NCBI GenBank assembly: GCA_947631575.1
Contig: CANRLW010000012.1
Location: 1 to 34,960 of the forward strand
Direction: 5' to 3'
From: an uncultured Clostridia bacterium
Lineage (GTDB): Bacteria > Bacillota > Clostridia > Oscillospirales > Ruminococcaceae
DNA length: 34,960 bases
A model generated the notes under the pieces. It saw nothing but the letters and a program-made list of their open reading frames with translations, was not told the DNA's origin and did not search any database. Positions 205-31,979 of this stretch are shown here, in pieces (within the stretch, counting starts at the first letter, position 1; the number at the start of each line of letters is the position of its first letter). A program made the translations under genes and the position numbers.

Positions 205-505
205 GAGCGGAATTTCTTTTCCGCTCTAAGGTGGTTGCACTTTTAAGGTCGTTTTACGCTCAAAACCTCTCTATAGGATTGCCGTTTTAAAAACACGTTT
301 TTTAAAACGGCAATGCGGGGAAAACTCTTGTTTTCCCCGCACCCTTTAGCGCCTTTGAACGTTATTGAGGGAAAACTTTTTTGAAAAAAAGTTTTCCCTC
401 AAACTCCCTTTCAAAAAACTTTAATGCGCCGCCCGTTTTGTGGTTTGAAAATGAAACGTTGTTCGCCGCTCAAAACTAAATCCAGCCTCCAGCCTCTAAA
501 TGCTC
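205..505 (+). repeat. B element copy 1
   Basis: A structured dispersed repeat. Hairpin i has ATTGCCGTTTTAAAA arms, hairpin ii GCGGGGAAAAC/GTTTTCCCCGC, and hairpin iv GAGGGAAAACTTT/AAAGTTTTCCCTC. Hairpin iii is absent from this copy. The right end carries GTTCGCCGCTCAAAAC and a degenerate E-like tail of the CCTCCAGCCTCTAA type. No credible coding sequence is seen in 1-637. Confidence 0.8.
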
Positions 506-561
506 ACTTTTTCGGTGTTTGTTTCAAAACATCAAATTAAAGATTTTTTTGAAAAATCGTC

Positions 562-590
562 TTGACATCAAAGTAAAATTGTCATATAAT
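562..590 (+). promoter_or_regulatory. sigma-A promoter of serC
   Basis: TTGACA at 562-567 and TATAAT at 585-590 are separated by 17 nt, a perfect consensus. It lies about 45 bp upstream of the serC start and probably drives serC, the DUF6440 gene and serA. Confidence 0.9.
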
Positions 591-637
591 AGAAACAGTG
601 GTGTTTTTCACCTAATTTATTTCAGGAGGATTTTTCA

Positions 638-1717
638 ATGAGAGTTTATAACTTCAGCGCAGGTCCTGCCGTGTTACCGGAAGAAGTATTAAAAGAGGCG
701 GCAGACGAAATGCTCGATTACAACGGAACAGGTATGTCCGTTATGGAGATGTCACACCGCTCAAAAGCATACGACGATATAATTAAAACCGCCGAAAAAG
801 ACATCCGCGAGCTTATGAACATTCCCGACAATTATAAGGTGCTGTTCCTTCAGGGCGGCGCGTCACAGCAGTTTGCTGCCGTTCCGATGAACCTGATGAA
901 AAACAGAAAAGCAGCTTATATCATCACAGGTCAGTGGGCAAAGAAGGCTTATCAGGAGGCACAGCTCTTCGGCGAGGCTGTAGCCGTTGCGTCATCTGCG
1001 GATAAGACATTTTCTTATATCCCCGATTGCTCGGATCTTGACATTCCCGAAGACGCAGACTACGTTTACATCTGCGAAAACAACACCATCTACGGCACAA
1101 AGTTTAAAACACTCCCCAACACAAAGGGTCATATCCTCGTTGCGGACGTTTCTTCGTGTTTCCTGTCAGAGCCTGTAGACGTTACAAAATACGGCGTTAT
1201 CTACGGCGGCGTTCAGAAGAACGTAGGTCCTGCGGGTCTTGTTATTTCAATAATCCGCGAGGATCTTATAACAGACGACGTTCTCCCCGGAACTCCCACA
1301 ATGCTTAAATGGAAGACCCAGGCGGACAACGATTCGCTCTACAATACCCCCAACTGCTATGCTATCTATATCTGCGGAAAGGTATTCAAGTGGATAAAGA
1401 AAATGGGCGGTCTTGAGGCTATGAAAGCACTCAACGAAAAGAAAGCCAAGATCCTCTACGACTTCCTTGATGAGAGCAAGCTCTTTAAGGGCACTGTACG
1501 CGCGGAGGACCGTTCGCTTATGAACGTTCCGTTCGTTACGGGAAATGAGGAGCTTGACGCTAAGTTTGTAAAGGAATCCAAGGCTGCGGGCTTTGAGAAC
1601 CTCAAAGGTCACAGAACAGTCGGCGGCATGAGAGCCTCTATCTACAACGCTATGCCTATCGAGGGCGTTGAAAAGCTCGTTGATTTTATGAAGAAGTTCG
1701 AGACTGAAAACGGCTGA
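638..1717 (+). CDS. serC: Phosphoserine aminotransferase
   Basis: This enzyme makes O-phosphoserine from 3-phosphohydroxypyruvate and glutamate with PLP, the second step of the phosphorylated serine pathway, in the cytosol. The 359-aa protein is full length. It starts with the family signature RVYNFSAGPAVLPEEVL, has the QGGASQQFA phosphate-binding region near residues 72-80, and carries the PLP lysine in GGVQKNVGP (Lys194). The start is fixed by AGGAGGA at 624-630. It is first of three same-strand genes and is followed by serA, which makes its substrate. The pathway phosphatase SerB is not obvious next door. The family assignment is secure. Confidence 0.97.
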   Translation: MRVYNFSAGPAVLPEEVLKEAADEMLDYNGTGMSVMEMSHRSKAYDDIIKTAEKDIRELMNIPDNYKVLFLQGGASQQFAAVPMNLMKNRKAAYIITGQWAKKAYQEAQLFGEAVAVASSADKTFSYIPDCSDLDIPEDADYVYICENNTIYGTKFKTLPNTKGHILVADVSSCFLSEPVDVTKYGVIYGGVQKNVGPAGLVISIIREDLITDDVLPGTPTMLKWKTQADNDSLYNTPNCYAIYICGKVFKWIKKMGGLEAMKALNEKKAKILYDFLDESKLFKGTVRAEDRSLMNVPFVTGNEELDAKFVKESKAAGFENLKGHRTVGGMRASIYNAMPIEGVEKLVDFMKKFETENG

Positions 1718-1730
1718 GCAATATTATAAA

Positions 1731-1946
1731 ATGATAAGCAAATTTGAAAGATTCAAGACGATATATGCCCAAGGGTTTAAGCCTTATCGGGAGATAATTG
1801 TTGACACTCTGACGGGCGTTAATTATCTGTTTGTCAGGAGCGGAAATTCGGGCGGTCTTACCGTCCTTATCGACAAAGACGGAAAGCCCGTTGTTACTCC
1901 CGAATATATCATAAATGAAAATGATCTCCCCGAGGGAAAAGCGTAA
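1731..1946 (+). CDS. Small DUF6440-type protein
   Basis: A 71-aa soluble protein of unknown function lying 13 bp after serC. It has the pattern I recall for the DUF6440 family: a lysine-rich start, then DTLTGVNYLFVRSG, GGLTVLIDKDGKP and a short acidic tail. There is no signal peptide or membrane segment. No strong ribosome binding site is visible, so translation may be coupled to serC. Its position between serC and serA implies co-transcription, but these small proteins are common next to unrelated genes, so I infer no role in serine synthesis. Confidence 0.8.
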   Translation: MISKFERFKTIYAQGFKPYREIIVDTLTGVNYLFVRSGNSGGLTVLIDKDGKPVVTPEYIINENDLPEGKA

Positions 1947-2002
1947 ATTATTAAAAATTAAGGCAGACAGCCTTTTATACTAAATTGAAAGCTGGTATTA
2001 TT

Positions 2003-3166
2003 ATGTACAATATTCAGACATTGAACAAAATAGCGGCTTGCGGAACAGACCTGCTCGACAAGAACAAGTATACCGTAAGCGACAGCGCTGAAAATCCCGA
2101 TGCAATTCTTGTACGCTCTGCGGCTATGCACGATATGGAGCTTGGCTCAAATCTTCTCGCTATAGCAAGAGCGGGCGCGGGAACAAACAATATCCCGATA
2201 GATAAATGCAGCGAGCGCGGAATTGTTGTTTTCAACACTCCCGGCGCGAACGCAAACGCAGTAAAAGAACTTGTTATCTGCGCACTTCTGCTTTCGTCAA
2301 GAAAGATAGTTCCTTCTACAGAGTGGATAAAAACTCTCAAAGGCAAGGGTGACGAGGTTTCAAAGCTGGTTGAAAAAGGAAAGAGCCAGTTTGTAGGTCC
2401 GGAGATAATGGGAAAAAAGCTCGGCGTTATAGGTCTTGGAGCAATAGGCATTCTCGTAGCTAACGCCGCTGCCGCTCTCGGAATGGAAGTTTACGGCGCA
2501 GACCCGTTCCTTTCCGTTGACAATGCGCTTAAACTCACGGGAAAAGTTCACTATGTAAAATCAAATGATGAAATTTACGAAAAGTGCGACTATATAACGC
2601 TCCATGTTCCCGCTACTCCCGAAACAAAGGGAATGATAAACGCGGAAACAATAGCAAAGATGAAGAAGAATGTACGTCTTTTGAACTTTGCGCGCGGCGA
2701 TCTTGTTTGCGACAAGGCTGTTCTTGACGCTCTCGCAAACGGCGGCATGGCTTGCTATGCGACGGACTTTGCGACGGACGATCTTATAGGAGCTGAAAAC
2801 GTTATAGCGTTCCCGCACCTCGGCGCGTCTACGCCCGAAAGCGAGGACAACTGCGCGGTTATGGCGTGCAAGGAAATTCAGGATTATCTTGAAAACGGAA
2901 ACATAAAGAACTCCGTAAACCTTCCGAATATGGAAATGGCAATAACCGGTACCGCAAAGATCTGCGTTATCCACAAGAATGTCGAGGGCGTTATAAACAA
3001 CATCACTTCTCCGATTTCCGCTATGGGAATGAATATCGAGAACATGCAGAGCAAGTCCAAAAAGGATTATGCTTATACCTGCCTTGATGTTGCGGGAAAT
3101 ACGACGGGCATTGAAGAAAAGCTCAAAGTCGTTCCGAACGTTGTAGGCGTTAGAGTTGTTAAGTAA
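2003..3166 (+). CDS. serA: D-3-phosphoglycerate dehydrogenase
   Basis: This enzyme oxidises 3-phosphoglycerate to 3-phosphohydroxypyruvate with NAD, the first step of serine synthesis. The 387-aa form has an N-terminal substrate domain, an NAD-binding GVIGLGAIG motif, and the 2-hydroxyacid dehydrogenase residues Arg (NFARGDL), Glu (STPESEDNC) and His (FPHLGAS). A C-terminal ACT domain begins near ICVIHKNVEGV; in this family it commonly binds serine for feedback control. I chose ATG 2003 because homologues begin near MYNIQTLNKI. A TTG at 1985 would add six residues without a clear ribosome binding site. Third gene of the serC operon. Confidence 0.93.
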   Translation: MYNIQTLNKIAACGTDLLDKNKYTVSDSAENPDAILVRSAAMHDMELGSNLLAIARAGAGTNNIPIDKCSERGIVVFNTPGANANAVKELVICALLLSSRKIVPSTEWIKTLKGKGDEVSKLVEKGKSQFVGPEIMGKKLGVIGLGAIGILVANAAAALGMEVYGADPFLSVDNALKLTGKVHYVKSNDEIYEKCDYITLHVPATPETKGMINAETIAKMKKNVRLLNFARGDLVCDKAVLDALANGGMACYATDFATDDLIGAENVIAFPHLGASTPESEDNCAVMACKEIQDYLENGNIKNSVNLPNMEMAITGTAKICVIHKNVEGVINNITSPISAMGMNIENMQSKSKKDYAYTCLDVAGNTTGIEEKLKVVPNVVGVRVVK

Positions 3167-3192
3167 AAACAGCACTAACAGTGCTAAGAACG

Positions 3193-3226
3193 CAATGGGG
3201 ACTCTTTTAAAAAAGAGTCCCCATTG
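3193..3226 (+). terminator. Hairpin after serA
   Basis: A perfect inverted repeat: CAATGGGGACTCTTTT and its complement separated by 2 nt, 27 bp after the serA stop. The T-tract is poor, so termination is inferred. A smaller hairpin, AGCAC-TAACA-GTGCT, lies at 3171-3185. Confidence 0.6.
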
Positions 3227-3236
3227 ATCGTATAAA

Positions 3237-3771
3237 AACCTATTTGTTGTTCTTTTCAAAAGTTGTTTTTCTAAATGACGTTCTCTCGCCCTATCCCCCT
3301 TCCCCTTCCCCGAAGGGGAAGGGGGAGAGTCGCGGGGACTCCGTCCCCGCTGCCCCGTTGTCATTTGACTGGACGCGCAGCGCCCTGCACCCGCCAGTTT
3401 AGAGGTGCGCCGCCTTCCAGAGGTTAGTTCTTGGGAAAGCCGGACGAGCGCCCCCGCTTTCCATAAAGGCGCGTTGACGCCAATTGCAGAAAGCGCGCAA
3501 GTCGGGCGGGTGAGTTGTTTTGGAGTTGAAAAGGCGCGGGCGGGCAATTGCCTCCCGGCTATTACTGTACCCCGCCCCCCCTGTTGGTGGTTGACATGGG
3601 TTCGGGGCGCAGCCCCGATGCGGCAACAGGGCGCGCAGCGCCCTGTTGCCATTAGGCGGGGCAGCGGGGGCGGCAGCCCCCGCATACTTCCCCCTTCCCC
3701 TTCGGGGAAGGGGGTCAGGGGGATAGGGCGAGAGAGCGTTATTGAGAGAAACAGCGTTTGAAAAGAACCGC
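3237..3771. repeat. A-F-D-A composite repeat cassette 1
   Basis: An inverted A end (3237-about 3350) and a direct A end (about 3651-3771) enclose an F segment (3366-3560) and GC-rich palindromes. The outer ends read CCTATTTGTTGTTCTTTTC on the left and the inverse of GAAAAGAACC on the right. This layout matches 20639-21104. Overlapping open frames on both strands encode low-complexity sequence that recurs with the repeat, and I do not call them genes. The whole 3167-3982 gap is otherwise a D remnant (3780-3809) and the YfhO promoter region. Confidence 0.75.
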
Positions 3772-3894
3772 TTGCTGAATAATGTACATTGTCTACTGTC
3801 AACTGCCGACAGGCGTTTCCTCTTTGCAATAAAAAAACCTTGAAAAAGGAAATAAAATTTGTATAACTTGCATATATGAAATAAAACTTATAAA

Positions 3895-3903
3895 TGCTAT
3901 AAT
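3895..3903 (+). promoter_or_regulatory. Extended -10 promoter of YfhO gene
   Basis: TGCTATAAT gives a TGn-extended perfect -10 at 3898-3903. The hexamer 17 nt upstream, TATGAA, is a weak -35. Confidence 0.5.
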
Positions 3904-3982
3904 AAATTCAGCGAAAAACTTTTATAATAAATAAATTCGGCACATAATCCCAACAATCATTTTATTACAAAAAGGAGCTATA

Positions 3983-8330: not shown

Positions 8331-8689
8331 CTTCTTTCCCGCTCTGAGGTAGTTTCACTTTTGAGGTCGTTTAACGCTCAACACCTCTTTTAGGATTGCC
8401 TTTTCAAAGCACGGCTTTGAAAAGGCAATGTGGGGAAAACTCTTGTTTTCCCCACACCCCAGATTCAATGCCGAAGGCATTTAATCTGATGCGCTTAACT
8501 GGCGTTTGCGGGGGCGCTGCCCCCGCACCCCTGCCAGAGGGAAAAAATTTTTTGAAAAAAATTTTTTCCCTCTGGACTCCCTTTTCAAAAAACTTTAATG
8601 CGCCCGCCCGTTAGGCGGTTGAAATTTTGAAGTCGCTTTGCCGCTCAAAACAGTTTCTTACCTCTTACATCTAACCTCTTACATCTAAA
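8331..8689 (+). repeat. B element copy 2
   Basis: A complete B element. Hairpin i is 8395-8409/8415-8429 (15-bp perfect stem). Hairpin ii is 8430-8440/8445-8455 (GTGGGGAAAAC). Hairpin iii is GCGGGGGCGCTGCCCCCGC at about 8509-8527. Hairpin iv is an A/T-rich stem closed by CAGAGGG/CCCTCTG at about 8535-8576. The right end, GCCGCTCAAAAC, is followed by an E array (8655-8688) that runs into the ribosome binding site of the next gene. Confidence 0.85.
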
Positions 8690-12634: not shown

Positions 12635-12682
12635 AAGCAATGTTCCTCCCGGAAATAAAATTCTGCACTAACGCCAATGTTT

Positions 12683-12711
12683 ATTTTACCACAATGCACA
12701 AGCAAAATCAA
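12683..12711 (-). promoter_or_regulatory. Promoter of the ATP-grasp operon
   Basis: Minus strand: TTGATT (12706-12711), 17-nt spacer, TAAAAT (12683-12688), with TGTGG immediately before the -10. Confidence 0.75.
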
Positions 12712-12776
12712 GTAAAAAAATTCCGCAATTTGCATTGCGGGGGAAATTTTTTGGGGGATTTACAGATGAAACGGGG

Positions 12777-13076
12777 GATTGCTTTCCCGCTCCAAGGTTT
12801 TTCACACTTAAAGTTCTTCCCCGCTCAATACCTCTCTATAGGATTGCCTTTTCAAAGCACGGCTTTGAAAAGGCAATGCGGGGAAAACTCTTGTTTTCCC
12901 CGCACCCTTTAGCGCTTGCTAACGCGTTGCGGGGGCTTTGCCCCCGCGCCCCCACCAAAGGGGAAAAATTTTTTGAAAAAAATTTTTCCCCTTTGGAATC
13001 CCCTTTCAAAAAACTTTCGTGCGCCCGCTCGTTAGGTCGTTTGAACGGAAAAGCGCTTTGCCGCTCAAAACAATCT
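12777..13076 (+). repeat. B element copy 3
   Basis: It has the four-hairpin layout. Hairpin i is ATTGCCTTTTCAAAG with its complement, hairpin ii GCGGGGAAAAC/GTTTTCCCCGC, hairpin iii GCGGGGGCTTTGCCCCCGC, and hairpin iv is closed by AAAGGGG/CCCCTTT. The E tail is missing; the right end passes directly into half of a C element. Confidence 0.85.
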
Positions 13077-13138
13077 AAATATTATCCGCAAAGCGGATAC
13101 CATAACTGCATACTGTACATTGTACACTGTATACTGCA
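13064..13138 (+). repeat. Half C element fused to B copy 3
   Basis: Only the right half of C is present: CAATCTAAATATTATCCGC, a small hairpin ATCCGC-AAA-GCGGAT, and a D array of the TGTACACTGTATACTGC type that ends 3 nt from the downstream ABC gene's stop codon. Confidence 0.7.
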
Positions 13139-13139
13139 T

Positions 13140-14879
13140 TCACCCTTCTTCCCTGCTCCTGATCAATTCCGCATAAAACCCTTCTTTTGCTATAAGCTCC
13201 GAATGTGTTCCCTGTTCAACTATATGCCCCGACTTCATTACAAGTATACAATCCGCCTCTCTTATCGTTGAAAGTCTGTGCGCGACAACAAAACTCGTTC
13301 TTCCCTTTGTCATCGCGTTAAACGCGCTTTGTATCTGCATTTCCGTTCTCGTGTCAATAGAACTTGTCGCCTCGTCAAGAATAAGCATCGGCGGCAGCGA
13401 CAGCATTACCCTCGCTATCGACAAAAGCTGCCGCTGACCTTGGGATAATTCCGCGTCATTTGTAATAACCGTGTCATATCCGTTTTCAAGCTTTCTTATA
13501 AAGCTGTCCGCGTGCGCCGCTTTTGCCGCGGCAATTATCTCTTCATCAGTGGCGTCGGGCTTTCCGTATGCGATATTCTCCCGAACTGTGCCTTTAAACA
13601 CCCATGTTTCCTGAAGAACGATACCGTAGTTTTCGCGCAGGCTGTCGCGGGTCATTTCTTTTATCGGTATGCCGCTTACTTTAATTTCTCCGCTTGTAAC
13701 ATCATAAAACCGCATAAGCAGGTTTATAAGCGTTGTTTTTCCGCAGCCCGTCGGTCCTACTATGGCTATATGCTGCCCGCTCTTTACTTTTAAGTTTAAG
13801 TTTTCAATAAGCGGCTTTTCGGGCACATAGCTGAAATAAACATCACTGAGCGAAACGTTCCCGTCGCAGTCTTTAAGTGCAGCCTTGCCATCGTCCGGGC
13901 TTTCAGCCTTTTCATCAAGTATCGCAAATATCCTCGATGCCGAGGCAAGCGCGCTCTGAAGTTCGGTCATGACTCCCGAAATTTCATTAAACGGCTTTGT
14001 ATACTGGTTTGCATACTGTAAAAAACAGCTTAGGTCGCCTACCGTAAAACCGCCGCTTACGGCTTTTACCGCGCTCAATGCTCCGAAAATTCCCACTCCT
14101 GCATACACGAGGGAGTTTACAAACCTTGTACAAGGATTAGTGAGTGCCGAATAAAACTGCGCTCTGCGTCCGCAGACATTGAGCCGCTCGTTTATCTCGC
14201 CAAATTCTTCTTCCGAATTTTTCTCAAACCCAAACGCTTTTACCAGCCTAAGCGCGCCTATTCTTTCATCAGTAAATCCCGTAAGCTCGCCTTTTATCGT
14301 GCTTTGCTCGCGGAATTTGTTGAAACAGAGCTTTGAGATAATTCCCGCCACGGCAAACGAAAGCGGCGTTATTATAACGACCACAAGCGTTATCTGCCAG
14401 TTTAGACTTAGCATAAACACAAGCGTTCCTATGATAGTGACAACGCCCGTGAATAATTGCTGAAAGCCCTGTAAAAGCCCGTCGCTCACCGCGTCTACAT
14501 CATTTACCACGCGCGATAGAATATCGCCGTGAGAGTTTGAGTCGATATACGAAAGCGGCATTTCCTGCAAATGCGCGAAAATGTCCGTGCGAAGTTGTTT
14601 TACGGTCTTGTGAGATATCATGTTTGTGAGATAATACATCAACCACTGTAAAAACGCTACTATAGGTATGATTATTGCAATAGTAATAAGGATAGGCGTC
14701 ATTTTCTCAAAATCAACGCCGCTTAGTGAAATACAGTCCACCGCCCTGCCTATTAAAACGGTAGTATAAAGCGAAAGCAAAACGCTCCCCGCCGCGCATA
14801 AAAGGCTTATTATCACAAGCCCGAGCGAGGACTTTACATATTTAAGCAGGCGTATAAGCGCGTCTTTTTTGTTATTCAT
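13140..14879 (-). CDS. ABC exporter half-transporter with intact ATPase
   Basis: A 579-aa membrane protein with an N-terminal six-helix exporter domain (about residues 15-310) and a C-terminal nucleotide-binding domain. It has Walker A GPTGCGKTTL, signature LSQGQRQ, Walker B MLILDEATSSID with catalytic Glu, and the H-switch AHRLSTI. With the upstream gene, which it overlaps by 8 bp, it forms a heterodimeric exporter of the TM287/288, LmrCD or BmrCD class. This partner is TM288-like. The substrate cannot be read from sequence; multidrug, peptide or lipid export are the usual roles. Confidence 0.92.
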   Translation of the reverse strand: MNNKKDALIRLLKYVKSSLGLVIISLLCAAGSVLLSLYTTVLIGRAVDCISLSGVDFEKMTPILITIAIIIPIVAFLQWLMYYLTNMISHKTVKQLRTDIFAHLQEMPLSYIDSNSHGDILSRVVNDVDAVSDGLLQGFQQLFTGVVTIIGTLVFMLSLNWQITLVVVIITPLSFAVAGIISKLCFNKFREQSTIKGELTGFTDERIGALRLVKAFGFEKNSEEEFGEINERLNVCGRRAQFYSALTNPCTRFVNSLVYAGVGIFGALSAVKAVSGGFTVGDLSCFLQYANQYTKPFNEISGVMTELQSALASASRIFAILDEKAESPDDGKAALKDCDGNVSLSDVYFSYVPEKPLIENLNLKVKSGQHIAIVGPTGCGKTTLINLLMRFYDVTSGEIKVSGIPIKEMTRDSLRENYGIVLQETWVFKGTVRENIAYGKPDATDEEIIAAAKAAHADSFIRKLENGYDTVITNDAELSQGQRQLLSIARVMLSLPPMLILDEATSSIDTRTEMQIQSAFNAMTKGRTSFVVAHRLSTIREADCILVMKSGHIVEQGTHSELIAKEGFYAELIRSREEG

Positions 14880-20187: not shown

Positions 20188-20638
20188 CTGAATAAAACAA
20201 GCGAAAGCCTATTTGTGGTTCTTTTCAAACGCTATTTTCTCTAAATTACGCTCACTCGCCCTATCCCCCTAACCCCCTTCCCCGAAGGGGAAGGGGGAAA
20301 TTTGCGGGCGCTGCGCGCCCTGCACTCGCCCCTTTTAGAGGTAAGAGGTTAGAAGTAAGAGGTAAGAGTTTAAGGCGAAAGGCTGTTTGCTGAATAAAAC
20401 AAGCGAAAGCCTATTTGTGGTTCTTTTCAAGCACTGTTTCACTCAATAACGCTCTCTCTCCCTATCCCCCTGACCCCCTTCCCCGAAGGGGAAGGGGGAA
20501 ATTTGCGCGGGCTGCTGCCCCCGCAGCCCCTGCCTCCGGGCTGCGCGCCCTGCACTCGCCCCTTTTAGAGGTAAGAGGTTAGAAGTAAGAGGTAAGAGTT
20601 TAAGGCGAAAGGCTGTTTGCTGAATAAAACAAGCGAAA
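20188..20638. repeat. Tandem direct repeats with A and E parts
   Basis: Units begin CTGAATAAAACAAGCGAAAG at 20188, 20390 and 20620 (202 and 230 bp long; the third runs into the cassette at 20639). Each has an inverted A end with the CCCCTTCCCCGAAGGGGAAG palindrome and then an E array (AGAGGTAAGAGGTTAGAAGT). The second unit has an extra GC-rich segment of about 28 bp. No gene is seen. Confidence 0.8.
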
Positions 20639-21104
20639 GCCTATTTGTGGTTCTTTTCAAACGCTATTTTCTCTAAATTACGCTCACTCGCCCTATCCCC
20701 CTGACCCCCTTCCCCGAAGGGGAAGGGGGAAAGTCGCGGGGACGAAGTCCCCGCGACCCCTGCCTCCGGGCTGCGCGCCCTGCACTCGCCCCTTTTAGAG
20801 GTTAGCCCTTGAGGGAAAGCGGGGCGAGCACCCCCGTTTCCGTTAAATGCGCGTTCGACGCCTAAGGCAGAGAACGCGCAAATCGGGCAAGTAAGTTGGT
20901 TTGGAGTTGAGAAGGTGCGGGCGGGCAATTGCTTTCCCCTATTACTGCATACTGTCCATTGTATACTGTCAACTGTAGGCAGGGTAGCGGGGGCGGCAGC
21001 CCCCGCATTCTCCCCCCCCCTTCCCCATCGGGGAAGGGGGCAGGGGGATAGGGCGAGTGAGCGTAATTTAGAGAAATTGCGTTTGAAAAGAACCACATAT
21101 GGGC
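20639..21104. repeat. A-F-D-A composite repeat cassette 2
   Basis: A 466-bp unit with terminal inverted repeats of about 65 bp. The left end runs from GCCTATTTGTGGTTCTTTTC to CGCCCTATCCCCCTG; the right end is its near-perfect inverse, ending at CCACATATGGGC. Inside are an F segment (20775-20935), a D array (20940-20983) and GC palindromes. There is no transposase, so it is MITE-like. Open frames on both strands here are repeat-derived. Confidence 0.8.
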
Positions 21105-21117: not shown

Positions 21118-21459
21118 ACGGATTTTCTTTTCCGCTCCATAGTAATTACACACCAAAGGCGTTTTCCCGCCCAAAACCTCTTTTAGGATTGCCTTTTCAA
21201 AGCACGGCTTTGAAAAGGCAATGTGGGGAAAACTCTTGTTTTCCCCGCACCCCAGATTCAATGCCGAAGGCATTTAATCTGATGCGCCTAGCTAGCGCCG
21301 TTTCGCGGCTTACGCCGCGACCAGAGGGAAAAAATTTTTTGAAAAAAATTTTTTCCCTCTGGACTCCCTTTTCAAAAAACTTTAATGCGCCGCCCGTTTG
21401 GCGTTTTGGATATCAAACGTTGTTCGCCGCTCAAAACAACTTCTTACCTCTTACCTCTA
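21118..21459 (+). repeat. B element copy 4
   Basis: Hairpin i is ATTGCCTTTTCAAAG with its complement. Hairpin ii is GTGGGG.../...CCCCGC with one G-T wobble. Hairpin iii is replaced by a different stem, CGCGGC-TTA-CGCCGCG. Hairpin iv is closed by CAGAGGG/CCCTCTG. The E tail (TTCTTACCTCTTACCTCTA) contains the complement of the TAG stop of the GNAT gene. Confidence 0.85.
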
Positions 21460-21937: not shown

Positions 21938-23209
21938 TTATTCCTCAACACTAAATGAATTTTCGCCTATGGTTATTCTTGTTCCCAAAAAGATAGGCAC
22001 AGCGCCACCGCTCTTTGCTATCCTCTCCTCGCCGTTTGGGAGAGTATAACTCCAGTCGCTTTCCGAAAGGTTTTTCAGCCCCCAGAGCGCGGGGTTCTTT
22101 TTATTCCTGACAACTTCTCCTATAGGCTTTACATTGTCATCAAACAATTTTGCGCTTTCCGAAAGCAAAACGCCCGCTTTCCCGCCTTTAAGCTCCAGCG
22201 GTTTTGAAAAGTGATTCTTGCACAAGCAGACAAGCTTTCCGTTTTCGTCGGTGTCCATTGCGGATAAGAAATTCTGTATACCGCATGAACAGGAAACAAT
22301 TTCCCCGCGCAGCCTTTTCAGAAGATCGAGCCACTGTTTTTCAATAAGACGTTTCTGCGGCTCGCGAAGTCCTACCGTAAACGAAAAAATAAACGCCTCT
22401 TTTATGTAATCGGGCATTATCTGCCAGAATTTTATTATGTTGTTATGCACGCCGCGCACGGGACGGTTTGAGTCGTCAACGGGGTCATAGACAAAAACGG
22501 GTTCAAAGCCGTAATGTCTGCGCTCGGCATCTTCGGTGAGACAGACGCTTTTAAGCACCTTGCAGCCTTCGAGCGGGTCGCCTCTCAGCAAAAGCCTGAA
22601 CAAGACCACCGCCAGCGAATATCTGTCGGTATACTTATCGGGAGCTTTTTCGCCTCTGACGGTTTCGGGAGCCATATAGCCGGGTTTTCCCGCAATGCCG
22701 AGATGTTCGCCGTATGGGGCGATATTGTCACAGTCACAAATAAGAACATCGCCGTCGGACGGGCGTATGAAAAAGCCGCCGTCGTTTATGTCCTGATAGC
22801 TTTTGCCGCTGTTGTGGAGGGTGCGGAAAGCGGAGGTTATACGAATTGCCGAATTTACTACGGAGTAAAGACCTTGGAGCTTTACGCGTGCGTTCAGTAT
22901 ATCGGAAAAGGGCTTGTATTCTTTGGGGATAAGGTCCATTAAAAAGCCGAAACTGCCTTCGATATTGTCCGTGAGCATAAGGGGCATGAGGAAGGCTCTG
23001 TCGGAATTTTTGTCCTCGGTGAGGGCGCGGAGGTTTTCGCGGAATAGACCGGGGCTTTTGAGTTTGTTGGGGAAGTAGATTTTCAGGGCGTATTCCTTTC
23101 CGGAATAATCGGCGCGGTAGACGGTGCCTTGACCGCCAGAGCCGAGGATATCGGTAATAGTTGCACGCCCGCCGCGTTCAAGCGGGACGGTGTCGCCGAT
23201 GTTGAGCAT
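21938..23209 (-). CDS. Ter-type protein kinase with zinc-binding C-terminal region
   Basis: A 423-aa cytosolic Ser/Thr kinase-like protein of the kind found in TerY-kinase-PP2C stress systems. The glycine loop is GSGGQGTVYRA (residues 23-33) and the ATP lysine is Lys43 (YALKIYF). The catalytic loop is SYQDINDGGFFI with Asp140 but Gly145 where an Asn is usual. DFG is replaced by DCD (159-161), and APE is at 180-182. After the kinase comes a cysteine-containing region (SCSCGIQNF, LVCLCKNHF) and a small beta-rich tail with GLKNLSESDW. No vWA, PP2C or TerD gene is within the window. AAGGAGTG precedes ATG 23209, directly after an E repeat. It forms an operon with the GNAT gene. Confidence 0.85.
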   Translation of the reverse strand: MLNIGDTVPLERGGRATITDILGSGGQGTVYRADYSGKEYALKIYFPNKLKSPGLFRENLRALTEDKNSDRAFLMPLMLTDNIEGSFGFLMDLIPKEYKPFSDILNARVKLQGLYSVVNSAIRITSAFRTLHNSGKSYQDINDGGFFIRPSDGDVLICDCDNIAPYGEHLGIAGKPGYMAPETVRGEKAPDKYTDRYSLAVVLFRLLLRGDPLEGCKVLKSVCLTEDAERRHYGFEPVFVYDPVDDSNRPVRGVHNNIIKFWQIMPDYIKEAFIFSFTVGLREPQKRLIEKQWLDLLKRLRGEIVSCSCGIQNFLSAMDTDENGKLVCLCKNHFSKPLELKGGKAGVLLSESAKLFDDNVKPIGEVVRNKKNPALWGLKNLSESDWSYTLPNGEERIAKSGGAVPIFLGTRITIGENSFSVEE

Positions 23210-23219
23210 TTAAATCACT

Positions 23220-23555
23220 CCTTTTAGAAGTAAGATGTTAGAGGTAAGAGGTAAGAAACTGTTCAGAGCGGCAAAGCGCGTTTCATTTTCAAACCACATT
23301 CCGAGCGGACGCATTAAAGTTTTTTGAAAAGGGAATCCAAAGGGAAAAAATTTTTTTCAAAAAAATTTTGCCCTTTGGCGGGGGTGCGGGGGCAGCGCCC
23401 CCGCAAACGGCAAAAGGCGCTAAAGGGTGTGGGGAAAACAAGAGTTTTCCCCGCATTGCCGTTTTAAAAACCGTGTTTTTAAAACGGCAATCCTAGAAGA
23501 GGTTTTAAGCGTGAAACCGCCTTAAAAATGCATTTGCATAAAAGCGGGAAAGAAG
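23220..23555 (-). repeat. B element copy 5 (inverted)
   Basis: It is inverted relative to copies 1-4. The E array is at 23223-23257, then hairpin iv, GC hairpin iii, hairpin ii (with one C-A mismatch at its base) and hairpin i with GCCGTTTTAAAAAC arms. It occupies the region upstream of the kinase, so kinase transcription must start within or beyond it. Confidence 0.85.
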
Positions 23556-23604
23556 TTCGTTAATGGTTTCAAACAGTGATAAATGAGAGAACTGCCTTTC
23601 GGCT

Positions 23605-23643
23605 ATTACTGTACACTGTACACTGTACACTGTTCCCTGTCTA
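23605..23643 (-). repeat. D array overlapping a stop codon
   Basis: Heptamer array TGTACACTGTACACTGTACA. Its end reads TAGACAGGGAACAG on the minus strand, where TAG is the stop of the HAD gene. Confidence 0.75.
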
Positions 23644-24270
23644 CAACATCTTCCCGCACACTTCCGTTAGCTCCGCAAACTCCGCTATCCTCTCGGTTTC
23701 GCGTGATGTTTGCCCAAAGCCGTAGGCTGCGTGAATAAACGGCACTCCCGCGCTGTCCGCAGCGTCAAGGTCGCCCTGGGTGTCGCCGACATAGACCGCG
23801 CGAGCTGCATTGTTGCGCTTTAGAATGAGCTTTATGTTCTCGCCCTTTGAAAGCCCTGTCTTTCCAAAGCTCTCAAAGTCGCGGAAAATGCCCGAGCCTA
23901 ACTGCCTGAGAAAAAGCTGTATATAGCCGTTCTGACAGTTGCTCACTATCATAAGCGCGTATTTTTCCGAAAGCGCGCCGAGCGTTTCGGAAAGTTTCGG
24001 ATATAAAACGGGCTTGTGCGTTGAAAGATATTCAAGCTCAAAGTCCATACATTCGAGCATTATTTTCTTTCGGACGTTTTCTTCAATTTCGGGCATCATA
24101 AGCCGCGCTATCTCGTCCATCTGCTTTCCCATCAAACCGCGCATTTCGGCAACGCTTATCGTTATTCCGCGCGTTTCGGGGTGCTTGTCCAGTATAACGT
24201 TCCACGAGCCGGCGACCTGCTCGGAGCTGTCCCAAAGCGTACCGTCAAGGTCAAAAACAACAGCGTTCAT
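23641..24270 (-). CDS. HAD-family phosphatase
   Basis: A 209-aa cytosolic HAD hydrolase of the phosphoglycolate phosphatase/beta-phosphoglucomutase-like type. Motif I is VVFDLDGTLWD at the N-terminus, motif II MIVSNCQNG, a conserved lysine lies in the FGKTGLSKGENIKLIL region, and motif IV is YVGDTQGDLDAA. ATG overlaps the stop of the upstream zinc-ribbon gene (TGATG), so the two are coupled. Substrate unknown; by sequence it could act on small phosphosugars or serve in repair of phosphorylated metabolites. The stop codon coincides with a D repeat end. Confidence 0.9.
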   Translation of the reverse strand: MNAVVFDLDGTLWDSSEQVAGSWNVILDKHPETRGITISVAEMRGLMGKQMDEIARLMMPEIEENVRKKIMLECMDFELEYLSTHKPVLYPKLSETLGALSEKYALMIVSNCQNGYIQLFLRQLGSGIFRDFESFGKTGLSKGENIKLILKRNNAARAVYVGDTQGDLDAADSAGVPFIHAAYGFGQTSRETERIAEFAELTEVCGKML

Positions 24271-26273: not shown

Positions 26274-26293
26274 CGAATTTTGAAGTTTAACTG

Positions 26294-27120: not shown

Positions 27121-27123
27121 CGT

Positions 27124-27200: not shown

Positions 27201-27453
27201 ATTACTGATATTTTAACACTTTTAAGAGCGTTTTTCAATAGCTTGTTGAGATTTTGTGAAAAACTCCTAAAAACCGACTGTGAAATTATATCATACTGTA
27301 GAAAAAAGTCCCATATGCAAGCATAATAAAACTGCGGAAGAAAACGCTGCCGCATATATTAACATATATTAAACGTTACCGCCTGCCCGATAAATTCACA
27401 TTATATGTAAAATGTGCATATAATTGCCGGAATAATATTGTTTATTTTTGACC

Positions 27454-27483
27454 TTGACGAACGGCTTTTGAAAATGTTACAAT
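27454..27483 (+). promoter_or_regulatory. Promoter of the surface protein gene
   Basis: TTGACG (27454-27459), 18-nt spacer, TACAAT (27478-27483), followed by a leader of about 45 nt with GGAGG before the ATG. Confidence 0.75.
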
Positions 27484-27532
27484 AAAAATAAGTAAGTTTG
27501 GCTTTAAATCAAAAAATGGAGGAAAATATATT

Positions 27533-28435: not shown

Positions 28436-28458
28436 TTCACGGTTTTGAAAAATTTAAG

Positions 28459-28488
28459 ACCACCCCGATTTTTGTCGGGGTGGTTTTT
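28459..28488 (+). terminator. Terminator of the surface protein gene
   Basis: Stem ACCACCCCGA (28459-28468)/TCGGGGTGGT (28475-28484) followed by TTTTT. Confidence 0.92.
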
Positions 28489-28504
28489 CGGTGTACAGCA
28501 GGAG

Positions 28505-28821
28505 GGGGATGTCTTTCCCGCTCTATTGTAAATTATTTTTTTAGGTAGATTTACGCTCAACACCTCTTTGTAGGATTGAGATTTTCAAAATATGATTTTG
28601 AAAATCTCAATGTGGGGAAAACTCTTGTTTTCCCCACACCCTTTAGCGCTAAGAATCGATTGCGGGGGCGCTGCCCCCGCGCCCCCGCCAAAGGGAAAAA
28701 ATTTTTTGAAAAAAATTTTTTCCCTCTGGACTCCCTTTTCAAAAAACTTTAATGCGCCCGCCCGTTAGGCGGTTTGAATATTAAACATTGTTCGCCGCTC
28801 AAAACTAATTCTTATCTCTAA
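28505..28821 (+). repeat. B element copy 6
   Basis: Hairpin i here is ATTGAGATTTTCAAAAT with a perfect complement, a different arm sequence from the other copies but still fully paired. Hairpin ii is GTGGGG/CCCCAC, hairpin iii GCGGGGGCGCTGCCCCCGC, then hairpin iv. The right end is GCCGCTCAAAAC plus a short E tail CTTATCTCTAAAAG. After it, 28842-28917 holds two more hairpins, including TAAGGGGGAAAACC and its complement, up to the rnhA promoter. Confidence 0.85.
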
Positions 28822-28927
28822 AAGCACTGTTCGGCTATCGTCCGCCGCGCAAGCGGCGGCTAGTAAAAGTTTTGGAAAGGTGGTCTAAGGGGGAAAACCT
28901 TTTGGTTTTCCCCCTTAACTTGCGCTA

Positions 28928-28956
28928 TTGACAACTTACGCTGATTATTGTATAAT
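28928..28956 (+). promoter_or_regulatory. Promoter of the rnhA operon
   Basis: TTGACA (28928-28933), 17-nt spacer, TATAAT (28951-28956): a perfect consensus, 49 bp before the rnhA start. Confidence 0.92.
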
Positions 28957-29005
28957 ATAGGTAGTGCGGCTGACCGCACGAATTCGGCAGAATAACGGAG
29001 ACAAA

Positions 29006-29443
29006 ATGAAGAAAGTAGAAGTGTATGCAGACGGCGCTTGCAGCGGGAATCCCGGTCCGGGAGGATATGGCGTTATACTCCGCTGTGAGGGCAGAGAAAA
29101 AGAATTGAGCGGCGGCGAGCCCCACACCACAAACAACCGAATGGAGCTTATGGGCGTAATTGCCGCGCTGGAGGCCCTGAAATACCCGTGCGCCGTAACA
29201 GTAACCACCGACAGCAAGTATGTCGTTGACGGGATAACAAAAGGCTGGGCAAAGAGCTGGAAAAGCCGCGGCTGGAAAAAAAGTGACGGAAAGCCCGCCC
29301 TTAATCCCGATCTGTGGGATAGGCTGCTGGGCTTGCTCGAAATTCACGACACCGAGTTCTGCTGGATAAAAGGTCACGCGGGACACCCCGAAAACGAACG
29401 GTGTGACGCGCTCGCAGTTGAACAAAGAGATAAGTTTAAATAG
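29006..29443 (+). CDS. rnhA: Ribonuclease HI
   Basis: A 145-aa cytosolic endonuclease that cuts the RNA strand of RNA-DNA hybrids (R-loops, primer removal). Catalytic residues are all present: Asp9 ([12 protein letters not shown]), Glu47 (NRMELMG), Asp69 (VTTDSKYV), His124 ([11 protein letters not shown]) and Asp134 (RCDALA). ATG 29006 follows CGGAGA and begins at the canonical KKVEVYADG. An in-frame ATG at 28964 is too close to the promoter -10. It is first in an apparent operon with queH (33-bp gap) and moxR. Confidence 0.96.
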
Positions 29444-29476
29444 TAAAACCATAATTTAAGAGCAAAGAGTATTTTT

Positions 29477-30103
29477 ATGCAGAAAATTAACTATCAGTAT
29501 AAACTTGACGGGATAATAAATTCTCTCGAAAAAACGCCTACATTGCTTTTGCATAGCTGCTGCGCGCCGTGTTCGAGTTATTGTCTGGAATACTTATCGA
29601 AGTATTTTTCGATAACGGTTCTGTATTATAACCCGAACATTTATCCCGAAGAGGAATTTTATAAGCGTGCAAATGAACAGAAAAGGCTTATAGAGGAACT
29701 TCCCGCAAAAAATCCCGTGTCGCTTGTAGTGGACGAATACGACCCGCAGGAGTTCTTTTCCGCGGTGAAAGGTCTGGAGCATATAAAAGAGGGCGGGGAG
29801 AGGTGTTTTGCCTGCTACAGGCTGAGGCTTGAACGTGCGGCGAAATATGCCGCGGAGTATAATTTCGATTATTTCTGCACTACGTTATCTATAAGCCCGC
29901 TAAAAAATGCGCAGAAAATAAACGAAATAGGCGAGGAGCTTTCGGAGATATGCCGCTTTCTTCCGAGCGACTTTAAGAAAAAAGGCGGGTATCAGCGCTC
30001 TGTTGAGCTGTCAAAAGAATACGGTCTTTACAGGCAGGATTATTGCGGGTGTGTTTTTTCACAAGCGGAAAGACGCGCCGAGGTTATTGAAAAAGGAGAA
30101 TAG
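29477..30103 (+). CDS. queH: Epoxyqueuosine reductase QueH
   Basis: A 208-aa enzyme that reduces epoxyqueuosine to queuosine in tRNA, the last step of queuosine synthesis; it is the non-cobalamin alternative to QueG (formerly DUF208). Metal-site cysteines are visible: HSCCAPCSSYC (Cys28, Cys29, Cys32), ERCFACYRLRLERA (Cys110, Cys113), and a C-terminal DYCGC (Cys190, Cys192). FCTTLSISPLKN is also typical. Other queuosine genes are not in the window. It is followed after 3 bp by moxR, whose ribosome binding site (AAAGGAGAA) overlaps its end. Confidence 0.95.
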   Translation: MQKINYQYKLDGIINSLEKTPTLLLHSCCAPCSSYCLEYLSKYFSITVLYYNPNIYPEEEFYKRANEQKRLIEELPAKNPVSLVVDEYDPQEFFSAVKGLEHIKEGGERCFACYRLRLERAAKYAAEYNFDYFCTTLSISPLKNAQKINEIGEELSEICRFLPSDFKKKGGYQRSVELSKEYGLYRQDYCGCVFSQAERRAEVIEKGE

Positions 30104-30106
30104 GTT

Positions 30107-31018
30107 ATGCGACCCGAAATTGAAAAGCTTGTTGACAACATTGAAAAGGTCATTATAGGAAAGCGCGAGGTAATTGTAAAAGTTATCTGCGCTATGCTTG
30201 CGGGAGGACACGTTCTTATTGAGGACGTTCCGGGAGTGGGAAAAACGCTTTTGGCGCAGACGCTCGCAAAGTCCGTTTCGGGAACGTTCGGGAGAATACA
30301 GTTTACGCCCGACCTTATGCCGTCGGACGTTGTGGGATATACGATGATAGACAGGGACGGACATTCGGAATACCGCGCGGGAGCGGCTATGTGCAATTTC
30401 CTGCTTGCGGACGAGATAAACAGGACGTCGCCAAAAGTTCAGTCGGCGCTGCTTGAGGCAATGGAGGAATTGCAAATTTCGGTTGACGGGATAACTCATA
30501 AGCTGCCTGTGCCGTTTATGACACTTGCGACGCAGAATCCTATTGAGACATACGGCACTTATCATCTTCCCGAGGCGCAACTTGACCGCTTTTTAATGCG
30601 GCTTTCGATAGGATATCCCGACCGTTCGGCGGAAAAGAGCATGCTTGAAAAAATGCCGCATACTATAGGAATTGCGCCTGTTATGTCGCTTGACGAGATA
30701 ATGAAGTTGAGAGAAGAGGCGGGGAAAATATCCGTTTCGGACGCGGTGAAGTCGTATATTCTTTCGATAGTGTCGGCGACAAGGACAAAGCAGGAAATAA
30801 AGCTCGGAGCGTCGCCGAGAGCGACAATTGCGCTTTTCCGTGCGGCGCAGTCAATGGCGCTTATAAACGGCAGAGATTATGCCGTACCCGATGATGTAAA
30901 GATAATAGCGGCAGATGTGCTTTCGCATAGGGTGATACTTGCGGCAGGACAAAGCGCGTTTCTTGATTCAAAAGCGATAATTGAAAAGATCCTGGAGGAA
31001 ACGGTAGTTCCCACCTAG
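30107..31018 (+). CDS. MoxR-family AAA+ ATPase
   Basis: A 303-aa cytosolic AAA+ chaperone-like ATPase of the MoxR family. Walker A is EDVPGVGKTLLAQ (residues about 39-51) and Walker B FLLADEINRTSPKVQ (Asp102-Glu103). The sensor region LATQNPIETYGTYHLPEAQ and C-terminal lid ASPRATIALFRAAQ follow. MoxR proteins usually mature partner complexes and are followed by DUF58 and transglutaminase-like genes. Here the TAG stop runs straight into an E repeat and B copy 7, so the usual partners are absent downstream. The length is normal, so the protein itself does not look truncated. Confidence 0.94.
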   Translation: MRPEIEKLVDNIEKVIIGKREVIVKVICAMLAGGHVLIEDVPGVGKTLLAQTLAKSVSGTFGRIQFTPDLMPSDVVGYTMIDRDGHSEYRAGAAMCNFLLADEINRTSPKVQSALLEAMEELQISVDGITHKLPVPFMTLATQNPIETYGTYHLPEAQLDRFLMRLSIGYPDRSAEKSMLEKMPHTIGIAPVMSLDEIMKLREEAGKISVSDAVKSYILSIVSATRTKQEIKLGASPRATIALFRAAQSMALINGRDYAVPDDVKIIAADVLSHRVILAAGQSAFLDSKAIIEKILEETVVPT

Positions 31019-31345
31019 AGGTTAGAGGTTAGAGGCTAGGGGCTAGAAACTGTTTCGAGCGGCGAACAACGTTTAATATCCAAACCACCTGACGGGCGGC
31101 GGCATTAAAGTTTTTTGAAAAGGGAGTCCAGAGGGAAAAAATTTTTTTCAAAAAATTTTTTCCCTTTGGCGGGGGTGCGGGGGCAGCGCCCCCGCAAACG
31201 CGTTAGCCAGCGCTAAAGGGTGCGGGGAAAACAAGAGTTTTCCCCGCATTGCCTTTTCAAAGCCGTGCTTTGAAAAGGCAATCCTACAAAGAGGCTTTGA
31301 GCGTGGAACTGCTTACAGTATGAAAAACCGAGGAGCGGGAAAGCA
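31016..31345 (-). repeat. B element copy 7 (inverted)
   Basis: It starts with the E array TAGAGGTTAGAGGTTAGAGG, whose first three bases are the moxR stop. Then come the right-end motif (inverse of GCCGCTCGAAAC), hairpin iv, hairpin iii (GCGGGGGCAGCGCCCCCGC), hairpin ii (GCGGGG/CCCCGC) and hairpin i with GCCTTTTCAAAG-type arms. Confidence 0.85.
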
Positions 31346-31384
31346 AGAGCGTAAAGACTATTCAGCGGTATATAATGGGAGAAC

Positions 31385-31563
31385 AGCCTTTCGGCTGTTA
31401 TTACTGACTACTGTACATTGTACCCTGTCAACTGACAACAGCGGGTGCAGGGCGCGCCAGCGCCCCGTTGCCATTTGACGGGGTCGCGGGGACGAAGTCC
31501 CCGCGACCCTCCCCCTTCCCCTCCGGGGAAGGGGGAGGGGGATAGGGCGAGTGAGCGTTATTT
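31385..31563 (+). repeat. D array plus A end
   Basis: D units near 31399-31437 (TACTGTACATTGTACCCTGT), then GTCGCGGGGAC/GTCCCCGCGAC, the CCCCTCCGGGG palindrome and the inner A motif GGGCGAGTGAGCG. This resembles the right half of the A-F-D-A cassettes. Confidence 0.7.
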
Positions 31564-31595
31564 AGAAGTAAGATGTTAGAGGTAAGAGGTAAGAA
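31561..31595 (+). repeat. E array between A and B
   Basis: A 35-bp array identical base for base to 23223-23257, although its flanks differ. Here it sits at the left rather than the right end of a B element. Confidence 0.8.
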
Positions 31596-31596
31596 T

Positions 31597-31979
31597 TTTT
31601 CCCCGCTCTATTGTAAATCCATTTTTGAGGTTGCTGCACGCCCAAAACATCTCTATAAGATTGCCGTTTTAAAAACACGGTTTTTAAAACGGCAATGTGG
31701 GGAAAACTCTTGTTTTCCCCACACCCTTTAGCGCCTAGCTAGCGCCGTTTCGCGGCTTACGCCGCGACCAAAGGGCAAAAATTTTTTGAAAAAAATTTTT
31801 TCCCTTTGGAATCCCTTTTCAAAAAACTTTTGTGCGCCGCTCGTCTTGTGGTTTAGATTTCAAACGTTGTTCGCCGCTCGAAACTTATTCTAGAAACTAG
31901 CCTCTCCTCTGAACATCAAAAAACGCTATCTCCCAAAAGCTCCCCGAATCTCTTACCTCTTACTTCTTATTTCTTACCT
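31597..31979 (+). repeat. B element copy 8
   Basis: Hairpin i with GCCGTTTTAAAAAC arms, hairpin ii GTGGGG/CCCCAC, hairpin iii replaced by CGCGGC-TTA-CGCCGCG as in copy 4, then hairpin iv. The right end has a long E-like tail (to 31982) containing the complement of the DUF4830 gene's stop codon. Confidence 0.82.

What the first reader, a model, noticed from the sequence alone, without database searches (positions are those of the whole stretch)
205..31979. Eight copies of a four-hairpin repeat (B) whose stems covary between copies
Eight copies (205, 8331, 12777, 21118, 23220, 28505, 31016, 31597) share hairpins i, ii and iv in fixed order, and most also iii. Arms change but stay paired. Hairpin i has GCCGTTTTAAAA, GCCTTTTCAAAG or GAGATTTTCAAAAT arms, each with its exact complement. 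The base of hairpin ii is C-G, T-A or T-G in seven copies, with one C-A mismatch in copy 5. Hairpin iv is closed by AGAGGG/CCCTCT, AAGGGG/CCCCTT or GAGGGAAAAC/GTTTTCCCTC. In copies 4 and 8 hairpin iii is replaced by an unrelated hairpin. Compensatory change argues for selection on, or a copying mechanism that preserves, a folded RNA or DNA. No transposase is present. I do not recognise a named family.
Basis: partly seen in the sequence, partly recalled or inferred. Interest (0 to 1): 0.78.

Follow-up and report, generated by a model that had tools for sequence, protein, structure and literature searches.

The report
Shape-shifting hairpin repeats in gut bacteria
Eight short non-coding DNA repeats here, and dozens more in this genome and in close relatives, keep the same chain of hairpins while the letters of the hairpin arms change in pairs; this looks less like selection on an RNA than like DNA arms copying each other, around one small core that stays nearly the same between species.

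Summary
The eight copies (two on the minus strand) belong to a non-coding repeat of 261-318 bp. A pattern for its core (AAAACTCTTGTTTT...CTTTAGCGC) matches 21 of 43 genomes of the window's genus (1-55 places each); a stricter one matches only this genus among 126 sampled in the family. The covariation is real: in 62 distinct alleles, 11 of 22 stem pairs change on both sides.
The marks of RNA selection are missing. Both-sided changes outnumber one-sided paired ones 125 to 4 (16 cells are unpaired). G.U is no commoner than A.C (5 against 6; tRNA acceptor stems from the same loci give 14 to 0). Loops recur as reverse complements. At three of four orthologous sites hairpin i differs in both arms and loop.
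I favour a non-autonomous mobile-type repeat whose hairpins are kept paired at DNA level, by template switching between arms and exchange between copies, with constraint on the core. In a congener (G011), elements with and without the core sit inside terminator-like hairpins that are duplicated on both sides (11 of 13 sites). The window's family shows no such duplication; no mobilising enzyme was found. Function is unproven. Rfam, phage, plasmid and viral searches gave nothing.

The parts
216..476 (+). copy 1: hairpin i 278-314, ii 314-341, iv 365-402 (no iii); a small hairpin 205-226 overlaps its left end
8334..8651 (+). copy 2: i 8395-8429, ii 8429-8456, extra hairpin 8460-8488, iii 8508-8526, iv 8534-8575
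12782..13071 (+). copy 3: i 12843-12877, ii 12877-12904, iii 12929-12947, iv 12955-12996
21127..21437 (+). copy 4: i 21188-21222, ii 21222-21249, extra hairpin 21253-21281, replaced iii 21303-21320, iv 21321-21362
23261..23552 (-). copy 5: i 23453-23493, ii 23428-23455 (C-A at its base), iii 23386-23404, iv 23337-23378 (two mismatches)
28513..28805 (+). copy 6: i 28575-28611, ii 28611-28638, iii 28662-28680, iv 28688-28729 (A.C mismatch); a terminator-like hairpin with T-run lies at 28458-28488
31052..31343 (-). copy 7: i 31248-31282, ii 31221-31248, iii 31177-31195, iv 31128-31169 (A.C mismatch); head-to-head with copy 8
31597..31884 (+). copy 8: i 31660-31696, ii 31696-31723, replaced iii 31750-31767, iv 31768-31809 (C.T mismatch)
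317..352 (+). conserved core (hairpin ii + CCCTTTAGCGC) in copy 1; same core at 12880-12915 (+) and 23417-23452 (-)

Best explanation
Repeat B is a non-coding, non-autonomous interspersed element, MITE-like and modular, found here only in one genus of Clostridia. It is a chain of DNA hairpins built around one conserved core: hairpin ii (GGGGAAAAC-TCTT-GTTTTCCCC) plus, in most copies, the box CCCTTTAGCGC. Shown: multi-copy dispersal, fixed order, a core that recurs in species whose other hairpins differ, paired evolution of those other stems, and hairpin i alleles that differ in both arms and loop at the same locus in relatives. Inferred: (1) the stems stay complementary because one arm is recopied from the other at DNA level (quasi-palindrome template switching, which also inverts loops), and because hairpins are exchanged between dispersed copies by recombination; (2) selection or an unknown recognising factor holds only the core and the hairpin-chain layout; (3) the elements spread by transposition in trans. 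In the congener G011, elements carrying the same core did this by inserting at terminator-like hairpins and duplicating them.
For: Copy number and range: core pattern in 21 of 43 genus genomes, up to 55 places; a stricter pattern in 5 of 297 family genomes, one genus of 126; 2 of 295 order genomes, one genus of 148. Paired change: 62 hairpin i alleles, 98.8% of 1364 cells paired, 125 both-sided against 4 one-sided paired cells (16 unpaired), 0 of 500 shuffles as high. Not RNA-like: G.U 5 and A.C 6 among those 22 pairs, against G.U 14 and A.C 0 among 196 acceptor-stem positions of 28 tRNAs in the loci in hand; in one class of hairpin iv the variable pair is G-C 44, A-T 25, A.C 21, G.T 0 of 90 copies; 8 of 12 one-pair steps between perfect alleles are transversions, which have no wobble path (two thirds is what blind choice among the three other pairs would give). 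Loop inversion: 7 reverse-complement loop pairs in 9 arm families, null means 1.3 and 2.2, reached by 0 and about 0.1% of 5000 draws. Hairpin differences at fixed loci: at 8331, 23220 and 28505 hairpin i differs in both arms and loop between orthologous copies whose left flanks align; at 12777 it is identical. The alleles on both sides at 23220 and 28505 also occur at other loci, 5 to 10 copies each, which fits exchange. Mobility of core-bearing relatives: 11 of 13 G011 sites have direct repeats of 21-34 bp (scores 17-34) that coincide with a terminator-like hairpin; maximum 10 in 156 mismatched pairings; one more site. Mechanism in print: template switching homogenises inverted-repeat arms and inverts spacers (PMC8604942, passages; PMC8794818, passages).
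Against: The window's own family shows no target duplication: 108 copies with both ends score like the mismatched control. No mobilising enzyme is shared by the copy-rich genomes: reverse transcriptase and Y1 transposase were not found in G000, G004, G006, G009 and G011, Cas1 not in G000, G006 and G011, IS1182-type not in G000, G004, G006 and G009. The conservation of hairpin ii with its TCTT loop and of CCCTTTAGCGC implies a function that this reading leaves unnamed. Among the close relatives, sites without B held other repeats; more distant congeners lack B upstream of the serC-like gene and at other sites, but are too diverged to define a junction. The loop null models are simple and arm families were pooled over species. 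G.U and A.C counts are small, and copies are not independent. The A.C-only bias in hairpin iv would also fit an RNA read from the minus strand. PMC8794818 found loop inversions coupled to compensatory change to be rare in rRNA.
Confidence: 0.6

Rival explanations
1. A structured RNA (3'-UTR element or small RNA): stems are held by selection for RNA pairing and the covariation is true compensatory evolution.
For: Covariation beyond shuffles; very stable folds on both strands of copy 1; similar order of hairpins across species, by eye; the small stem AGCG/CGTT after CCCTTT would contain a G.U pair and makes up 93 of the 115 cases listed.
Against: No G.U excess on the plus strand, A.C tolerated (control 84); loop inversions; hairpins that differ in both arms and loop at fixed loci; in the window and 17 further loci only tRNAs reach an Rfam gathering score, and all permissive matches lie far below their cut-offs. 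A minus-strand RNA is not excluded.
Confidence: 0.2
2. The core is a double-stranded protein-binding site: the 9-bp inverted repeat GGGGAAAAC/GTTTTCCCC with a 4-bp spacer is read by a dimeric DNA-binding or nucleoid protein, and the rest is passenger hairpins.
For: Of the 11 hairpin ii pairs 8 never vary and one departs in a single cell among 62 alleles whose hairpin i varies freely; cores occur on both strands in near-equal number, 17 and 19 in this genome.
Against: The TCTT spacer and the one-sided CTTTAGCGC box recur too, which a symmetric site does not need (where both were part of the pattern searched for); 22 of 43 genus genomes have no match. The 62 alleles come largely from loci found with the exact 22-mer, which favours invariance.
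Confidence: 0.12
3. REP/BIME-type repeats moved by a Y1 (RAYT) transposase, or retroelement-derived repeats moved by a reverse transcriptase.
For: Hairpin chains; head-to-head inverted pairs resemble BIMEs.
Against: PF01797 in 9 of 43 and PF00078 in 17 of 43 genus genomes, neither found in G000, G004, G006, G009 and G011, which carry 36-55 exact cores. These are drafts.
Confidence: 0.04
4. A relic array: an old, now immobile repeat reshuffled only by homologous recombination and replication slippage between copies.
For: No target duplications in the window family; modules and tandem-array ends differ between orthologous copies.
Against: Different species carry different variants around the same core in many copies, and G011 has identical or near-identical duplications of terminator-like hairpins.
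Confidence: 0.15

Closest known systems
BOX / RUP / SPRITE repeats of Streptococcus pneumoniae (PMC3049150 and review PMC10969869, passages read)
   Same: Short, non-coding, hairpin-rich intergenic repeats; BOX is modular with a variable number of inner modules; elements cluster and insert into one another.
   Different: Other sequence and taxon (sequence not compared here); here many hairpin alleles with both-arm change around a conserved core, tandem-array ends, and in a relative duplication of terminator-like hairpins.
Repetitive hairpin-forming / double-hairpin elements of mitochondrial DNA (PMC2800124, passages read)
   Same: Mobile-looking hairpin elements in intergenic DNA, sometimes in tandem; that paper mentions a few complementary substitutions between copies.
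   Different: That paper stresses conserved stems and substitutions in the loops; here stems vary widely in pairs and loops flip.
IS1272 / IS1182-family stem-loop-targeting insertion (PMC5678879 and PMC4923244, passages read)
   Same: Target is a hairpin, often an intrinsic terminator, chosen by structure and not sequence (compare G011 elements).
   Different: IS1272 deletes or replaces the hairpin and makes no duplication; in G011 the hairpin is duplicated, the outcome PMC5678879 draws as a possible pathway b. Concerns G011, not the window copies.
Quasi-palindrome template switching (PMC8604942, PMC8794818, passages read)
   Same: Arm homogenisation, multiple paired changes, loop (spacer) inversion.
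   Different: In the passages seen it is described for yeast genes and for RNA genes, not for a dispersed bacterial repeat family.
REP / BIME with RAYT transposase (PMC2817692, listing and start of abstract only)
   Same: Palindromes in alternating orientation, high copy number, intergenic.
   Different: No Y1 transposase found in five copy-rich genomes; longer, multi-hairpin unit.

Membership tests
MITE (non-autonomous DNA transposon) | short non-coding element, dispersed copies | tested here: met
   261-318 bp between the end motifs in the eight copies; 36 exact cores in this genome
MITE (non-autonomous DNA transposon) | terminal inverted repeats | tested here: inconclusive
   G011 relatives: TCAGnnnGTCGAAAAAGT-type ends, by eye; window family: CGCTCAAAAC motifs in direct orientation and variable tandem arrays (by eye), AACCACAAA/TTTGTGGTT around copy 1
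MITE (non-autonomous DNA transposon) | target-site duplication | tested here: not met
   window family: 108 copies score like control; met in G011 relatives, 11 of 13
MITE (non-autonomous DNA transposon) | matching autonomous transposase in the host | tested here: inconclusive
   Only four protein families were searched; GTCGAAAAAGT ends (one mismatch allowed) were not found on the three G011 stretches with IS1182-like matches that I took
REP/BIME-RAYT | Y1 (HUH) RAYT transposase in the genome | tested here: not met
   PF01797 not found in G000, G004, G006, G009, G011
structured RNA family (Rfam) | match at gathering score | tested here: not met
   only tRNAs in the window and 17 loci
structured RNA family (Rfam) | covariation with wobble preferred over A.C | tested here: not met
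   covariation yes, G.U excess no (tRNA control)
structured RNA family (Rfam) | transcribed as a discrete RNA | not testable with these tools
   no RNA-seq
BOX elements | boxA/boxB/boxC sequence modules | not tested
   compared by layout only, from PMC3049150 passages
IS1272-type stem-loop replacement | target hairpin deleted, no duplication | tested here: not met
   G011: hairpin duplicated at 11 of 13 sites

The most novel reading that the evidence does not exclude
The genus carries a structure-to-structure mobile system: hairpin-chain DNA recognised by its folded, conserved hairpin ii core (or by its ends) is inserted at other hairpins, cutting at the feet of the target hairpin so that the whole terminator-like hairpin is duplicated and the host gene keeps one, while the element's own stems drift in sequence because only the fold matters. 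The enzyme would be unlike the mobilisers tested (Y1, reverse transcriptase, Cas1).
Probability: 0.2. Interest if true: 0.85.

Novelty: new variant of a known kind. Interest (0 to 1): 0.62.

Why it matters
Paired change in stems is standard evidence for a functional RNA. Here is a bacterial repeat with many alleles where paired change is strong yet looks produced by DNA mechanics, with built-in checks (G.U against A.C, loop inversion, allele differences at fixed loci). It is a caution for covariation-based RNA discovery and a natural system to measure template switching. The related elements of G011 are a repeated natural case of an insertion that duplicates a whole terminator-like hairpin, an outcome drawn as a possible pathway in PMC5678879.

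Tried and rejected
Rejected: known RNA family (permissive searches gave only matches far below cut-off). Phage, plasmid or viral origin: no exact match of the 22-mer in the viral collection, no blastn match for window 240-480 in 72,556 plasmid or 50,697 phage records. Y1/RAYT, reverse transcriptase, Cas1 as common mobiliser; IS1182-type transposase matches in G011 are below the curated cut-off and there are none in G000, G004, G006, G009, and no matching ends on the three G011 stretches taken. Gene-orientation bias: my ORF heuristic gave mixed results (G000 upstream 20 plus / 18 minus, downstream 10 / 25; G004 upstream 8 / 6, downstream 7 / 10; G011 upstream 8 / 11, downstream 9 / 9), so I claim none, although the downstream skew in G000 may deserve a look. 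A minus-strand RNA: hairpin iv hints at it (A.C 21, G.T 0), the 62-allele alignment does not (5 against 6). Terminator function: hairpins ii and iv are not followed by T-runs in the copies printed (by eye).

One search recounts the acceptor stem position by position: 196 positions of 28 tRNAs, 180 Watson-Crick, 14 G.U, 0 A.C, 2 other.

Dropped rows: for, 88 distinct hairpin i segments were found, the first 70 printed and 62 aligned; eight with unalignable poly-T hairpins (L060 x3, L077 x2, L083 x2, L136) were left out. In one search hairpin i was parsed in 183 of 237 and hairpin iv in 172 of 237 copies; the hairpin iv search sometimes over-extends the arms, so its count of 91 perfect is low. 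Many loci were found with the exact 22-mer, which biases hairpin ii towards invariance; BLAST-found copies of this genome and relatives are in the same set. One search is my own re-implementation, not R-scape.

Literature searches for a described family or for hairpin-duplicating insertion; by their titles none of the listed papers describes this repeat, but lists were capped and most subscription journals are not held.


Full report
What is there. The window is contig C12 of a 1.88 Mb, 88-contig draft genome. The eight copies are at 216-476 (+), 8334-8651 (+), 12782-13071 (+), 21127-21437 (+), 23261-23552 (-), 28513-28805 (+), 31052-31343 (-) and 31597-31884 (+), between the end motifs CTTTCCCGCTC and CGCTCAAAAC or close variants. 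Order: hairpin i, hairpin ii, CCCTTTAGCGC box (in copies 2 and 4 a further CAGATT hairpin stands in place of its CTTTA), hairpin iii (absent in copy 1, another hairpin in copies 4 and 8), hairpin iv, ACTCCCTTTTCAAAAAACTTT or close variants. Outside the ends lie, in many copies, variable tandem arrays (TTCTTACCTCTTACC and ACTGTACACTGT types) that also bound other repeats (by eye). The copies lie between the long frames that look like genes, though mechanical ORFs run through some of them (my reading). The fold of copy 1 is 10.6 standard deviations more stable than shuffles.

How far it reaches. The pattern AAAACTCTTGTTTT-N6-20-CTTTAGCGC matches 21 of 43 genomes of the genus: 55 places in G004, 50 in G009, 46 in G006, 45 in G001, 37 in G011, 36 in G000, 27 in G332, 21 in G321, 11 in G313 and fewer in the others; reversed-pattern controls are 0. 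A stricter pattern matched 5 of 297 genomes of the family, one genus of 126; the order sample gave 2 of 295 genomes, one genus of 148. These were exact patterns, so diverged cores elsewhere could be missed. In the copies printed from these and from G011, G313, G321 and G001 the core is the same (they were found by it), while hairpins i, iii and iv have other sequences and are still mostly hairpins (by eye); in G011 hairpin i is weak or absent in one type.

Is the covariation real? Yes. In 62 distinct hairpin i-ii alleles, 98.8% of 1364 cells pair, 11 of 22 pairs have both-sided change, 125 cells against 29.7 expected from shuffles, and sliding the partner by 1-3 columns drops pairing to 36-59%. 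RNAalifold recovers the same two hairpins. My phylogeny-aware G-test on 159 sequences found three hairpin i stem pairs at E < 0.05, and two pairs that are not stem pairs. Over the 237 copies in hand, hairpin i was parsed in 183, perfect in 163, with 88 distinct forms.

What makes it? Four results speak against RNA selection on this strand. (1) Both-sided change outnumbers one-sided paired change 125 to 4, with 16 unpaired cells. (2) G.U and A.C cells are 5 and 6 in the 22 pairs, whereas the acceptor stems of 28 tRNAs in the loci in hand have 14 G.U and 0 A.C among 196 positions (the count had its zero built in). One class of hairpin iv keeps A.C in 21 of 90 copies and G.T in none. (3) Of 12 single-pair steps between perfect alleles 8 are transversions, the share expected if a wobble path plays no part. 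(4) Loops recur as reverse complements, 7 pairs in 9 arm families against 1.3-2.2 expected, for example AA and TT inside the AATGC arms, 11 and 9 copies. At four loci with an orthologous copy in a relative, hairpin i differs in both arms and loop at three (8331, 23220, 28505; the outermost pairs are shared) and is identical at one (12777), while left flanks and hairpin ii align closely. PMC8604942 and PMC8794818 (passages) describe template switching as homogenising inverted-repeat arms and inverting spacers; the second found loop inversion together with compensatory change rare in rRNA. I infer DNA-level recopying of arms plus exchange between copies. The conserved core and fixed order suggest that something is constrained; what reads the core is unknown.

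Mobility. In G011, core-bearing elements (family I) and core-less hairpin elements (family E) share ends of the type TCAGnnnGTCGAAAAAGT and sit at terminator-like hairpins. At 11 of 13 sites a direct repeat of 21-34 bp coincides with that hairpin, scores 17-34, against at most 10 in 156 mismatched pairings; the two exceptions score 7 and 9; L273 adds one site. This reads as target duplication whose length follows the hairpin; no unduplicated site was available for comparison. IS1272 targets terminator hairpins but replaces them; PMC5678879 sketches whole-hairpin duplication as a possible pathway, and PMC4923244 reports terminator targeting without duplication. The window family shows no such signal: 108 copies score like the control. 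So transposition of the window copies is inferred from dispersal and from relatives, not shown. Sites that differ between close relatives (for example 23220: B in G000 and G006, another repeat in G009) were not cleanly empty; more distant congeners lack B at several sites but are too diverged to show a junction.

Mobiliser. RVT_1 in 17 of 43 and Y1_Tnp in 9 of 43 genomes, neither found in G000, G004, G006, G009, G011; Cas1 in 16 of 43, not in G000, G006, G011; IS1182-type in 16 of 43, above cut-off in 3, not in G000, G004, G006, G009. Drafts may miss genes, and only these four families were searched. No partner was found.

Verdict. A modular hairpin repeat of MITE/BOX-like kind, found here in one genus, with unusual paired drift of its stems around a conserved core. 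Covariation confirmed, RNA explanation disfavoured but a minus-strand RNA not excluded, DNA-level recopying favoured, function of the core open.

Noticed in passing
G011 loci L261-L280, L324-L332: Two element families (with and without the core) share inverted ends and sit at terminator-like hairpins, duplicated on both sides at 11 of 13 sites tested.
   Followed up: yes
G011 L324-L332 (core-less family E): Its own hairpins also vary in pairs (CCCGCGAAGCGGG against CCTGCGAAGCAGG; closing stems GCGCGGAT, GCTGGGAT, GCGTGGAT) and a loop appears as CTTTG or CAAAG, by eye.
   Followed up: no
window 31052-31884; G011, G004, G313 rows, G001 and G009 rows: Cores closer than 500 bp are mostly head-to-head (minus then plus): by eye 14 of 16 pairs in the rows listed (lists of G001, G004 and G009 are partial), plus copies 7 and 8 here; like BIMEs.
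   Followed up: partly
G009 ortholog of window 12640-13145 (L169): A unit bounded by inverted TTAGAGG-type tandem arrays lies inside hairpin ii of a B copy; in L186 (ortholog of 31010-31985) the same left junction recurs with only the left half of hairpin ii.
   Followed up: no
G009 ortholog of window 23205-23645 (L186): Instead of B, another repeat with TGTACACTG arrays in inverted orientation around AATCTAA-type sequence; it shares the right boundary with B in G000 and G006.
   Followed up: no
window about 20200-21100: Repeated copies of another palindromic repeat (CCCCCTTCCCCGAAGGGGAAGGGGG with a GCGAGTGAGCG-type neighbour).
   Followed up: no
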